Shown: positions 22,422 through 26,068 of the stretch, piece after piece
Position numbering within the stretch: position 1 is the first letter of the stretch
Layout of the letters: each line of letters starts with the position of its first letter
Assembly (NCBI GenBank): GCA_016650125.1
Contig: JAENWT010000004.1
Location: 62,001-126,000 of the forward strand
Length of the DNA stretch: 64,000 bases
Direction of reading: 5' to 3'
Source of the DNA: Thermoleophilia bacterium
GTDB lineage: Bacteria; Actinomycetota; Thermoleophilia; Solirubrobacterales; 70-9
Made by a program: the position numbers and the translations under genes
Notes under the pieces: generated by a model
The model's database searches: none
The model's input: the letters and a program-made list of their open reading frames with translations, nothing else
What the model was told of the DNA's origin: nothing

Positions 22422-23246
22422 GTGATCCTCGGTCTGGTGCAGGGCCCGACCGAGCTGCTTCCGGTATCGAGTTCCGCCCACCTGGCTATGGTGCCGCGCC
22501 TGGCCGGATGGGACTGGGAGCGCCTCGACCCCGAGCTGCGCAAGAGCTTCGAAGTCGCTCTACATGCGGGTGCCGCGATGGCGTTGCTGCTGACCCGCCG
22601 GCACGAGATCACCGAGGAACTCGTCGCCTTCGACACCCGCCGGGCAGTCGTGCTCGCGCTCTCCTTCATCCCGGCCGCAGTCGTCGGCTACCGCTTCGAG
22701 CGGACGATAGAAGCCCGGCTCGGCGGACCGCGCTCGACCGCCGCCGGGCTGATCGGCGGTGGAATCGTCATGGCACTCGCCGATCGGCGGCCCCAGACCC
22801 GCGGCCGCGGCGAGGCTCATCCGGCCGACGGGCTCGCGCTCGGAGTGGCCCAGGCAGCCGCCCTGATGCCCGGTGTCTCCCGCAACGGCGCGACCCTGAC
22901 CGCCACCCGCCTGCGGCGGTTCTCCCGGGATCAGGCCAACCTGCTCTCGCGGACCGTGGCCCTGCCCGTGATCCTCGGCGCGGTCGCACTCAAGGGCGCC
23001 CGCCTGGCCAAGCGCGGCGTCTCCCGGGACCAGCGCCGCTGGCTCGCGATCGGCGTCGCCACCTCGTTCGCCTCCACCCTGGCCTCGAATGGCCTGATCG
23101 AAATCGTCGAAAGGGACCGCGCACTCCGGCCCTATGCGATCTACCGGATCGCCTTCGGCCTGACGATCCTGGCCGTGCTGACGGGTCGACCCGCTTCTGG
23201 TGTTGAATCCTCTGGTGATGACCACGGCCCTGCCTCAGACCAGTGA
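22422..23246 (+). CDS. uppP: undecaprenyl-diphosphatase
   Basis: A 274-residue BacA/UppP-type integral membrane phosphatase that regenerates undecaprenyl phosphate, the carrier used by the adjacent polysaccharide enzymes and by peptidoglycan synthesis. The two active-site motifs are visible: ILGLVQGPTELLPVSSSAHL (catalytic Glu) at the N-terminus and MPGVSRNGATLTATRL (catalytic Arg) near residue 150. GTG 22422 is the first usual start codon; the protein then begins unusually close to motif 1, and a CTG at 22389 would restore about 11 more residues. It overlaps purM by 4 bp. Confidence 0.92.
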   Translation: MILGLVQGPTELLPVSSSAHLAMVPRLAGWDWERLDPELRKSFEVALHAGAAMALLLTRRHEITEELVAFDTRRAVVLALSFIPAAVVGYRFERTIEARLGGPRSTAAGLIGGGIVMALADRRPQTRGRGEAHPADGLALGVAQAAALMPGVSRNGATLTATRLRRFSRDQANLLSRTVALPVILGAVALKGARLAKRGVSRDQRRWLAIGVATSFASTLASNGLIEIVERDRALRPYAIYRIAFGLTILAVLTGRPASGVESSGDDHGPASDQ

Positions 23247-24250
23247 GTGAACCGGACGCCTACGCCCAGGCCGGGGTGAGCCAGAGCGCTGCCGACCAGG
23301 CGGTGAGCCGGCTCGTCGCCGCGCTCGGCAAGGCCACGCTCGGCCGCCCGTCGCGCCAGGTCGACCTCAGCGGCCATTACGCCGCTGTGATCAAGCTCGA
23401 CGAAACGACCGGCATCGCACTCTCGACCGACGGCGTCGGGACCAAACTTCTGATCGCCGAGGAGCTGGGCCGCTTCGACACGATCGGCATCGACTGCATC
23501 GCCATGAACGTCAACGACATCATCTGCGTCGGCGCCGAGCCCCTGGCGATGCTCGACTACCTCGCCGTCGAGAAAGCCGACCCGGAACAGTGCGAGCAGA
23601 TCGGCACCGGGCTCGCCCGGGGAGCCGAACTGGCCGGGATCGAGATCCCGGGCGGCGAGCTCGCCCAGATGGGCGACATGGTGCGCGGATTCGACATCGC
23701 CGGCGCCTGCTTCGGCACCGTGCGACTTGATTCGATCATCGACGGCTCGGCCGTGGGGCCCGGCGACGTCGTCATCGGCCTGCCTTCGTCCGGCATCCAT
23801 TCGAACGGTTACACACTCGCCCGCAGTGCCCTCGAAGGGCTCTCCTTGGACGACGACCGGCTCGGCAAGCCGCTCGGCGACATCCTGATCGAGCCGACCG
23901 AGATCTACGTCAAGGCGATCATGGATCTGCTCGCTTCGAACGTGGCCGTCCACGGCCTCGCCCACATCACCTCGGGCGGGCTCGACAACCTGCTGCGGCT
24001 CAAGTCCGAGGTCACCTATGAGATCGGAGATCCCCTGGAGCCACAACCGATCTTCGGTTTGATTGCCGAGCGGGCCGGGGTTTCCGGGGAAGAGATGCAC
24101 GAAGTCTTCAACATGGGCTGCGGCTTTTGCTGTGTCGTCGCGGCGACCGACGAGAGCGAAGCCCTGGCCGTCCTGCGGGGGCATTACCCCGAAGCCCGGC
24201 GCATCGGCACGGTCGCCGAAGGCCCGCTTTCGGTAAAACGCGGCACCTGA
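23243..24250 (+). CDS. purM: phosphoribosylformylglycinamidine cyclo-ligase (AIR synthetase)
   Basis: A 335-residue ATP-dependent enzyme that closes the imidazole ring in purine synthesis (FGAM to AIR). Motifs: TDGVGTKLLIAEELGRFDTIGIDCIAMNVNDIICVGAEPL (PurM N-domain, ATP site), then GGELAQMGDM, VIGLPSSGIHSNGYTLAR, and HITSGGLDNLLRL with NMGCGFCCVV in the C-domain. The HITSGG and MGCG segments replace the usual HITGGG and MGIGM, so it belongs to a diverged branch. The GTG start overlaps uppP by 4 bp, so the pair is co-transcribed although functionally unrelated. Confidence 0.92.
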   Translation: MSEPDAYAQAGVSQSAADQAVSRLVAALGKATLGRPSRQVDLSGHYAAVIKLDETTGIALSTDGVGTKLLIAEELGRFDTIGIDCIAMNVNDIICVGAEPLAMLDYLAVEKADPEQCEQIGTGLARGAELAGIEIPGGELAQMGDMVRGFDIAGACFGTVRLDSIIDGSAVGPGDVVIGLPSSGIHSNGYTLARSALEGLSLDDDRLGKPLGDILIEPTEIYVKAIMDLLASNVAVHGLAHITSGGLDNLLRLKSEVTYEIGDPLEPQPIFGLIAERAGVSGEEMHEVFNMGCGFCCVVAATDESEALAVLRGHYPEARRIGTVAEGPLSVKRGT

Positions 24251-24257
24251 AACCTCC

Positions 24258-24305
24258 GGCAACGGTTTCCTATCGATACCACGGGAAACCGCGGCCAGAG
24301 AGTTG
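24258..24305. repeat. 48-bp structured repeat, copy 1
   Basis: It begins GGCAACGGTTTCC and ends CCAGAGAGTTG. The inner arms CGGTTTCC and GGAAACCG pair perfectly over 8 bp, and the outer GGCAAC pairs with GTTGCC at 24302-24307. It is nearly identical to copy 2; the differences lie only in the loop. Confidence 0.85.
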
Positions 24306-24318
24306 CCGCGCGTATTCT

Positions 24319-24366
24319 GGCAACGGTTTCCTATCGTGAGCACGGGAAACCGCGGCCAGAGAGTTG
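24319..24366. repeat. 48-bp structured repeat, copy 2
   Basis: It matches copy 1 at 45 of 48 positions with a 61-bp period. The three changes (loop TGAGC versus ATACC) leave both arms intact, which suggests that the stem is conserved. Only two copies exist and the 13-bp gap is too short for a CRISPR spacer. Confidence 0.85.
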
Positions 24367-24562
24367 GGGCCGCCTGTCGGGTGGGTAAATTGTCCTGTGC
24401 GGCTTTTGCCCATCTTTCATGACCAATTTTTCCCGAAACCGGCCCCCCGGCTACCGCCCGGAGCGACGCAGGGTAGGCTCGGTTGTCCATGGTTTTCACA
24501 GGCTGGATCGGTGAAATAGTGCAACTCGACAGAAATTCCGCGTCGAGACTTTCGCCGCGCCT

Positions 24563-26068
24563 ATGACCACACCGCCTTCCAGCGCACAGATGATCGGGAC
24601 GGTCCTCTCGGACCGTTACCGGCTCGAAGCCAAACTCGGCAGCGGCGGCATGTCGACCGTCTACCTGGCCCGGGATGAAGTCCTCGACCGCCCGGTCGCG
24701 GTCAAACTGATGCACCACGAGATGACCGAGCAGCCGGACCAGCTCGAGCGCTTCAACCAGGAAGCGCGCGCCGTGGCCAAGCTCTCCAACCCGAATGTCG
24801 TCGCCGTGATCGACGCCGGCGAAGACGGCGGCCGGCCGTACATCGTTCTCGAGTACGTCCAGGGAGAGACGCTCAAGCAGCGGATCAGCCGGGTCGGCGC
24901 ACTCGACGCGACCGAAGCGCTCGCCTACGCGCTGGAGATCGCCCAGGGACTGGCCGTCGCCCACGAAGCCGGAATGGTCCACCGCGACGTCAAGCCGCAG
25001 AACGTCCTGATCGATTCCACCGGTCGCGCCAAGCTCACCGACTTCGGCATCTCTCGTCAACTGAACGACGAAGGAGTGACCGCCACCGGGCGGGTGATCG
25101 GCACCACCGATTACGTCGCTCCCGAGCAGGCGATGGGCAAGGACATCGACACCCGCTCCGACATCTACTCGCTGGGAATCGTGCTCTTCGAGATGCTGAC
25201 CGGCGACGTGCCGTTCGTGGCCGACAACCAGATCGGCGTCGCGATGAAGCACGTCAACGAGCCGATCCCGGATGTCCAGGTCTCAAGACCCGACATCTCG
25301 GCCGCCTCCGGCCGGGTTGTCGACAAAGCGACCGCCAAAGACCCCGAGGACCGCTACGCGACGATCGAGGACATGCACGAGGACCTCCAGGCAGCCCTCG
25401 AAGTCGAGGCGATCCGGGCCGGCGGGACCACGGGCGAAGCGACCTCCGTCCTCGACGCACTGCCCGCGCCGCGCCGGCAGCTGCCCAGCTCCCGGAGCTC
25501 GCCCTGGCCGGCCGTGGTCATGCTCGTGATCGCCCTGGTCATCGCCGCCGGAACCGCGTACTTCATCTCTCGCGGCGACACCGGTGGTGGAGGAGGTGGC
25601 GCCGGTGTTGGTGCTTCGGGCGCATCCGAGATCTCGATCGTCTCGGCCACCGACTTCGACCCGGAAGGGGACGCGTCCGAACATCCCGACGAATTGGGAT
25701 TCGCGATCGACGAAGACCGGAACGGCTCCGCCTGGACGACCGAGACTTACGAAGCGGTGACGCTGAGCGACAAGACAGGCGTCGGCATGTACGTCGACAC
25801 CGGCGAGCCGGTCGAAGCCACGTCGATGGAGATCCGCACCCCCACCCCGGGCTGGAAGCTCGAGGTCTACGGCGCGAGGGATCCGATCCCGACGGACGTG
25901 GGTGGCTGGACCCGGCTCGGCGCAGTCGATGACGTGACCGAACGCGAGCAGGTCTCGCTGGTCACTGCGGGTGAGGCGTTCCAGTACTACCTGTTGTGGG
26001 TGACCGTGCCGGCCGAGACCGACGACGGTTTCGGCGTCGCGATCTCCGACATCCGGTTGTACGACTAG
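24563..26068 (+). CDS. membrane Ser/Thr protein kinase with extracellular discoidin-like domain
   Basis: A 501-residue Hanks-type kinase. The kinase domain spans about 19-280: glycine loop GSGGMSTVY, K48 in AVKLM, catalytic MVHRDVKPQN (H140-R141-D142), DFGIS (D160), APEQA. One membrane helix (314-336) and a Gly-rich linker lead to an extracytoplasmic beta domain (about 355-501) that looks like the F5/8 type C-like tails of actinobacterial kinases. Such a domain could sense a carbohydrate ligand, by contrast with PASTA sensors. It is convergent with ddl, with stop codons 1 bp apart. Its own ligand and substrates are unknown. Confidence 0.9.
   Translation: MTTPPSSAQMIGTVLSDRYRLEAKLGSGGMSTVYLARDEVLDRPVAVKLMHHEMTEQPDQLERFNQEARAVAKLSNPNVVAVIDAGEDGGRPYIVLEYVQGETLKQRISRVGALDATEALAYALEIAQGLAVAHEAGMVHRDVKPQNVLIDSTGRAKLTDFGISRQLNDEGVTATGRVIGTTDYVAPEQAMGKDIDTRSDIYSLGIVLFEMLTGDVPFVADNQIGVAMKHVNEPIPDVQVSRPDISAASGRVVDKATAKDPEDRYATIEDMHEDLQAALEVEAIRAGGTTGEATSVLDALPAPRRQLPSSRSSPWPAVVMLVIALVIAAGTAYFISRGDTGGGGGGAGVGASGASEISIVSATDFDPEGDASEHPDELGFAIDEDRNGSAWTTETYEAVTLSDKTGVGMYVDTGEPVEATSMEIRTPTPGWKLEVYGARDPIPTDVGGWTRLGAVDDVTEREQVSLVTAGEAFQYYLLWVTVPAETDDGFGVAISDIRLYD

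What the first reader, a model, noticed from the sequence alone, without database searches (positions are those of the whole stretch)
24258..24366. Pair of 48-bp hairpin repeats between purM and a kinase gene
Two tandem copies (61-bp period) agree at 45 of 48 positions; all three changes are in the loop, and the arms CGGTTTCC/GGAAACCG are untouched. Compensated structure with a variable loop suggests selection on a DNA or RNA hairpin. It does not resemble a terminator (no T-run) or CRISPR. It could be a mobile REP-like unit, a nucleoid-protein site or a cis-acting RNA in the long leader of the kinase mRNA.
Basis: seen in the sequence. Interest (0 to 1): 0.5.

Follow-up and report, generated by a model that had tools for sequence, protein, structure and literature searches.

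The report
Dispersed 47-bp intergenic DNA palindrome family
The two hairpin-like repeats are members of a small family of 47-letter DNA palindromes scattered between genes of one bacterial genome, a new but fairly ordinary example of the REP-like repeats known in many bacteria, with an unusually regular spacing between neighbouring copies.

Summary
The pair is real and belongs to a dispersed family: 31 copies found at 18 places in the same genome, lying between genes as far as start codons can be judged. The unit is a 47-bp imperfect palindrome: two 17-bp inverted arms, CTCTGGC[CG|AA]CGGTTTCC, around a 13-bp centre. Units stand alone (7), in pairs (9) or triples (2); 12 of 13 neighbours share orientation. 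Spacers are 24-25 bp (9 of 13) or 13-15 bp (3 of 13), mostly unrelated in sequence.

A kinase-leader role is unlikely: the copies lie 3 bp after the purM stop and upstream of a block conserved before the kinase in most congeners examined. The family is nearly confined to this species among 232 genomes of its order.

Best filed as an untagged REP-like family. No GTAG/CGTC tag, no Y1 (RAYT-type) transposase match, no target duplications, no longer element with near-identical ends. How it spreads is inferred. The fixed, possibly helix-phased spacing of direct doublets is the one unusual feature.

The parts
24254..24300 (+). unit 1: 47-bp imperfect palindrome, arms 24254-24270 and 24284-24300, centre 24271-24283
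   Evidence: (C4:86253, 67.3 bits)
24301..24314 (.). 14-bp spacer between the two units
24315..24361 (+). unit 2: 47-bp imperfect palindrome, arms 24315-24331 and 24345-24361
   Evidence: (C4:86314, 67.1 bits)
23243..24250 (+). purM-like gene (AIR synthase domains), stop codon 3 bp before unit 1
24427..24479 (+). block conserved before the kinase in most congeners examined (TTTTTCCC, then TAGnCT 46-47 bp on), downstream of both units; promoter role inferred
24563..26068 (+). serine/threonine protein kinase gene

Best explanation
The pair is one place occupied by a family of REP-like intergenic DNA palindromes. The unit is the 47-bp palindrome (17-bp arm, 13-bp centre, inverted 17-bp arm). Shown: 31 related copies at 18 places in this genome, and no such unit found in the corresponding interval of 16 congeners. 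Inferred: it spread as DNA by an enzyme acting in trans that is not identified here, and survives between genes because copies inside genes are removed by selection. Inferred: a protein recognises each arm as a half-site, which would explain why each arm takes one of two forms independently and why neighbouring units keep spacings that differ by about one DNA turn (60-62 against 71-72 bp start to start). It is not an RNA switch of the kinase; at most it lies in the 3' end of the purM transcript.
For: 31 places in the own genome (62 matches, each place on both strands), on 13 of 41 contigs. Each match covers all 49 model positions in exactly 49 bases although the model allows gaps, so length is constant even where the centre has diverged. 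All 50 arm matches with 0 or 1 mismatch lie inside the 31 units, so the palindrome, not the arm, is the unit. Position: one search gives 18 of 18 clusters between genes, but it chooses start codons outside the clusters by construction; with the longest start, 12 of 18 clusters are free of any called ORF and 6 are overlapped by the 5' part of one; 88% of the window is called coding. Gene directions, with four loci corrected by eye: 9 co-directional, 5 divergent, 4 convergent. Distribution: 2 of 232 genomes of the order at E<=1e-4, the second with one copy. Strict arm pattern absent in 16 of 16 congener loci. Covariation: 270/500 shuffles reach the observed pairing; pairing; covariation score. 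Arm states AAC/AAC 7, AAC/CGC 7, CGC/AAC 6, CGC/CGC 5, other 6 of 31. Same orientation in 12 of 13 neighbours; spacers 24-25 bp in 9 of 13, 13-15 bp in 3 of 13, 44 bp in 1. Counting 11 multi-copy clusters once, 8 share a 2-bp spacer bin, reached in 0 of 200,000 draws from a uniform 0-100.
Against: No enzyme found: no Y1 transposase (PF01797) match in the own genome, no target duplication (0 of 18 even at 3 bp; 1.4 expected by chance), no longer element with ends within 1 mismatch (its 2-mismatch matches, near control level, were not followed except one). Mobility thus rests on copy number, dispersal and absence elsewhere. Congeners are about 71-81% identical in the main matched pieces around this locus, so absence there does not date an insertion. 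Average identity between copies is 77%, so current movement is not shown. Units in clusters are no better conserved than singles (0.768 against 0.784), unlike the doublets reported for REPINs. Some copies do show paired changes on both arms (the G004 copy, CA opposite TG; C11:91259, GATTTC opposite GAAATC), so a mild pull towards pairing is not excluded. Protein binding is untested.
Confidence: 0.75

Rival explanations
1. Phased operator or nucleoid-protein site: each arm is a half-site for a DNA-binding protein, and copies persist because binding is useful, with spacing set by helical phase. This can be true together with a REP-like origin.
For: Two arm states combine freely; mostly unrelated spacers of 24-25 or 13-15 bp; start-to-start 60-62 against 71-72 differ by about one turn; 88% of arm pairs match against 31-50% for slid partners, i.e. 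both halves keep one consensus.
Against: A shared asymmetric centre in most copies looks copied rather than assembled by selection; 7 of 18 places hold a single unit; one pair is 91 bp apart in opposite orientation; no protein known.
Confidence: 0.3
2. Structured RNA or mRNA-end element: the hairpins act in transcripts, stabilising or ending the purM mRNA.
For: Seven of 18 clusters lie 3-10 bp after a stop codon (3, 4, 5, 5, 8, 9, 10); folds better than shuffles (in the RNA fold the two window copies pair with each other).
Against: No terminator-like match in the window region; 5 of 18 places are between divergent genes; among 9 co-directional places the centre is sense in 3, antisense in 5, mixed in 1 (read by eye); no clear covariation.
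Confidence: 0.15
3. MITE of a DDE transposon with 17-bp terminal inverted repeats.
For: Inverted 17-bp ends and constant length.
Against: No target duplications (0 of 18); no longer element with ends within 1 mismatch.
Confidence: 0.1
4. CRISPR-like or integron-like arrays (repeat-spacer-repeat, or recombination sites after stop codons).
For: Repeats with regular, mostly unique spacers; some sites just after stop codons.
Against: Scattered over 18 places with at most 3 units each; 3 of 3 tested spacers (of 13) have no exact match in viral contigs; no integron integrase over its cut-off in the own genome (8 weak matches, none over; the same model also gives sub-cut-off matches in 14 of 14 control genomes).
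Confidence: 0.02

Closest known systems
REP repeats and BIMEs, in particular the untagged REP-like families that PMC3733652 names in M. tuberculosis, D. radiodurans, Bordetellae, Brucellae and Cyanobacteria (part 1 of 8 and passages read)
   Same: Short palindromes, extragenic, many copies, single or in small groups, often just after coding regions; spacers in dimers may differ in sequence yet keep similar lengths.
   Different: 47 bp rather than 20-40; no GTAG or CGTC tag; only 31 copies found; neighbours direct in 12 of 13 cases, whereas that paper says that in many families most units lie close together in opposite orientation.
REPINs mobilised by RAYT transposases (PMC3116915, passages including part of the abstract)
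   Same: Inverted 16-17-base ends around a spacer, extragenic dispersal, doublets common.
   Different: No PF01797 match in the genome; neighbouring units direct, not inverted; clustered units not better conserved than singles. The 71-bp spacing in that paper joins inverted ends; I take the similarity with 71-72 bp here as coincidence.
Rhizobium RIME elements (recalled: about 108 bp with two large palindromes; only the citation was seen)
   Same: Intergenic element made of two palindromes, similar total length.
   Different: Other taxa; sequences not compared here.

Membership tests
REP-like intergenic palindromic repeats (broad class) | Short palindrome in many dispersed copies | tested here: met
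   31 copies in 18 clusters on 13 of 41 contigs
REP-like intergenic palindromic repeats (broad class) | Extragenic location | tested here: met
   12 of 18 clusters free of any called ORF; 6 of 18 (L010, L011, second L012 cluster, L017, L065, L066) overlapped only by the upstream part of an ORF read from its longest start, clear of it with a later start (which selects such starts)
Tagged REPs (GTAG or CGTC) | Terminal GTAG or CGTC tetranucleotide | tested here: not met
   1 of 31 copies has such a word within 6 bases of an end
REPIN/RAYT system | RAYT (Y1 transposase, PF01797) in the genome | tested here: not met
   0 matches in the own genome, 95.4% complete; 1 of 18 genus genomes has a match, G003, where the repeat model found nothing
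REPIN/RAYT system | Doublets inverted and better conserved than singlets | tested here: not met
   12 of 13 neighbours same orientation (strand scores differ little for the C17:32304/32376 pair and C2:84682); mean identity 0.768 for 24 clustered against 0.784 for 7 single copies
MITE of a DDE transposon | Target-site duplication and a longer element with the same ends | tested here: not met
   0 of 18 duplications; all 50 arm matches with 0-1 mismatch are inside units
Cis-acting structured RNA | Compensatory base changes beyond chance | tested here: not met
   observed values reached by 270/500, and by 38/500 (pairing) and 61/500 (covariation) shuffles
Cis-acting structured RNA | Transcribed in the kinase leader | not testable with these tools
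   no RNA data; position upstream of the conserved block argues against
CRISPR array | Spacers from phages or plasmids, cas genes near | tested here: inconclusive
   3 of 13 spacers tested, none with an exact match in viral contigs; 10 not tested; no cas search made
Integron attC sites | Integron integrase in the genome | tested here: not met
   TIGR02249: 8 matches, 0 over cut-off

The most novel reading that the evidence does not exclude
The unit is copied or inserted at a fixed helical offset (24-25 or 13-15 bp away, same orientation) from a resident copy, by an unknown trans-acting protein that binds the arms as independent half-sites. That would be a way of building phased arrays of palindromes unlike the inverted dimers of known REP systems.
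Probability: 0.15. Interest if true: 0.6.

Novelty: new member of a known kind. Interest (0 to 1): 0.3.

Why it matters
It adds an untagged palindromic repeat family with no RAYT match in its genome, so its spread should use something else. The regular spacing of direct doublets gives a concrete handle (half-site binding and phasing) for finding the protein involved. Two literature searches, (repetitive extragenic palindromic + Thermoleophilia) and (extragenic palindrom + Actinobacteria + direct orientation), returned no paper; the library holds open-licence papers only, and that the genome belongs to Thermoleophilia is my guess, from no call. A third search (palindromic repeat + intergenic + no RAYT) listed one Pseudomonas paper, not read.

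Tried and rejected
RNA switch in the kinase leader: rejected on position, mixed orientation and lack of clear covariation. Intrinsic terminator: no terminator-like match in 24200-24600, and 5 of 18 places between divergent genes. MITE: no duplications, no longer element. Hairpin across the spacer (right arm of one unit with left arm of the next): arm states agree in 3 of 12 same-orientation neighbours, so no support. Pairs as one mobile element: spacers are mostly unrelated apart from the C21 triple and, partly, C2; the mean alignment score of 8 spacers (28 comparisons) is slightly above shuffles (p 0.008), which could be remnant homology or flank preference and is not resolved. Upstream and downstream units of 8 pairs do not form separate groups (0.758, 0.767, cross 0.761). 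Weak base preferences next to the units exist (0.40 bits at the second outward position against a 99.9% null of 0.36) and are unexplained.

Relatives elsewhere: the one scan of genome contigs gave 9 stretches, one place each, in varied taxa; I read only L058, from a Thermoleophilia assembly, and took it for chance; the other 8 were not read. The G038 match (E 0.005 over 82 bases) was fetched (L108), not read, and is taken as chance. In one search the own genome has 34 pattern places per strand, of which 31 are the copies and 3 with three mismatches were dropped as chance; the 17 congeners have 0-7 per strand (controls 0-1), which I took as chance except one G004 copy. One search uses stricter filters and scored 26 candidates per genome: it recovers 26 of the 31 places in the own genome, so weak copies elsewhere can be missed. 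Of the 2-mismatch arm matches only C40:1516 was followed; it lies in a coding frame. Phages and plasmids: no match; viral contigs: none.

Full report
What is there. Two near-identical stretches lie 61 bp apart between a purM-like gene and a serine/threonine kinase gene. Their relatives show the true unit: 47 bp, two 17-bp inverted arms around a 13-bp centre, at 24254-24300 and 24315-24361. Both window copies have AA opposite CG inside the arm, and copy 1 has one more unpaired arm base at 24257.

How many. A DNA search found 19 matches in the window's own genome. A covariance model built from 25 copies found 62 matches, which are 31 places each seen on both strands; 150 of 1952 first-look candidates were scored, so diverged copies may be missed. 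A pattern search with up to three mismatches gave 34 places per strand against 1 for the reversed control; 31 are the same copies, 3 were dropped as chance. All 50 arm matches with 0 or 1 mismatch fall inside these units. With 2 mismatches there are further matches outside them, one a partial extra arm beside a unit (C16:34823); in total the search gave 48 and 47 against 36 and 38 for the control.

Arrangement. The 31 units form 18 clusters: 7 single, 9 double, 2 triple. Of 13 neighbouring pairs 12 have the same orientation, judged by the better model strand; 9 spacers are 24-25 bp, 3 are 13-15 bp and one, in the opposite-orientation pair, is 44 bp. Orientation is weakly defined for a few diverged copies. 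The C21 triple has repeated spacers and units 98-100% alike, and two of the C2 units are 98% identical. In 8 other pairs the partners are hardly more alike (mean 0.785) than any two copies (0.771), so they are not recent tandem duplicates. Eleven multi-copy clusters counted once give 8 in a single 2-bp spacer bin, reached in 0 of 200,000 uniform draws. The main start-to-start distances, 60-62 and 71-72 bp, differ by about one helical turn; that this reflects protein binding is inference.

Place in the genome. With ORFs read from their longest start, 12 of 18 clusters are free of any called ORF and 6 are overlapped by the 5' part of one; at L010 the extended frame spans the cluster. One search, which chooses start codons outside the clusters, places all 18 between genes; four loci (L012, L016, L018, L019) were corrected by eye from ORF lists. 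Directions: 9 co-directional, 5 divergent, 4 convergent. The window is 88% coding by the same codon-usage method. Seven clusters lie 3-10 bp after a stop codon. Relative to co-directional genes the centre is sense in 3, antisense in 5, mixed in 1. This mix does not fit a terminator or a leader RNA.

Structure test. Folding energies are well below shuffles, but that follows from any inverted repeat. With 25 copies, 270 of 500 shuffles reach the observed pairing; with 32 sequences, including one from a congener, 38 and 61 of 500 reach the pairing and covariation scores. At the variable arm position the four main combinations occur 7, 7, 6 and 5 times, other 6. Against this, two copies show changes on both arms that keep pairing: G004 (CA opposite TG) and C11:91259. 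On balance the arms vary independently, as half-sites would, and 'compensated structure' is not supported.

Relatives. Of 61 genomes, 3 had a match at E<=0.01: the own genome, one copy in congener G004, and a weak 82-base match in G038 that I take for chance. Of 232 genomes of the order, 2 at E<=1e-4 (stricter filters, which recover 26 of 31 own places). The corresponding interval was fetched from 16 of 17 congeners; in G014 only a 248-base piece upstream of purM matched besides the kinase, the G004 stretch ends before the kinase, and three (G002, G017, G004) hold an extra gene by eye. A strict arm pattern is absent in 16 of 16. TTTTTCCC is present in 12 of 16, followed 46-47 bp on by TAGnCT in 11 of these 12. 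In the window this block lies at 24427-24479, downstream of both units, which puts the units upstream of the probable kinase promoter. Congeners are about 71-81% identical in the main matched pieces here, so exact empty sites could not be read.

What it works like, and what it is. In broad class it is a REP-like repeat family. PMC3733652 (part 1 of 8 and passages read) says that REP dimers may have spacers of similar length and different sequence, and that families without terminal tags exist, so those features are not new. It fails the defining features of tagged REPs (1 of 31 with a tag word near an end) and of RAYT-driven REPINs (no PF01797 match; direct doublets; clustered units not better conserved). 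It fails as a MITE (no duplications, no longer element with ends within 1 mismatch). Spread by a trans-acting enzyme is therefore inferred, with no enzyme in sight; about 5% of the genome is missing.

Verdict. It is a new member of a known kind, modestly interesting for its regularly spaced direct doublets.

Noticed in passing
window 24427-24479 and loci L090-L105: A non-coding block (TTTTTCCC, present in 12 of 16 congener loci, then TAGnCT 46-47 bp on in 11 of these 12) is conserved upstream of the kinase, a probable promoter or regulatory site.
   Followed up: partly
L096, L103, L105 (congeners G002, G017, G004): By eye, an extra gene resembling DJ-1/PfpI-type proteins starts just after purM in these congeners; not searched against any family library.
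   Followed up: no
L009 (C21), within 100 bases of the repeat triple: A short tandem array of about 18-bp units (GGCGATCCACAAGGCT-like) lies next to the repeat triple.
   Followed up: no
L065 (C11:91259), L066 (C3:212459), L067 (C14:47233), L068 (C24:23988): Copies with a GATTTC or GAAATC arm and more diverged sequence, perhaps an older subfamily.
   Followed up: partly
G003:C204:3639-3971 (L111): The only Y1 transposase match (PF01797) among 18 genus genomes, in a congener without a repeat match; its own flanks were not examined.
   Followed up: no
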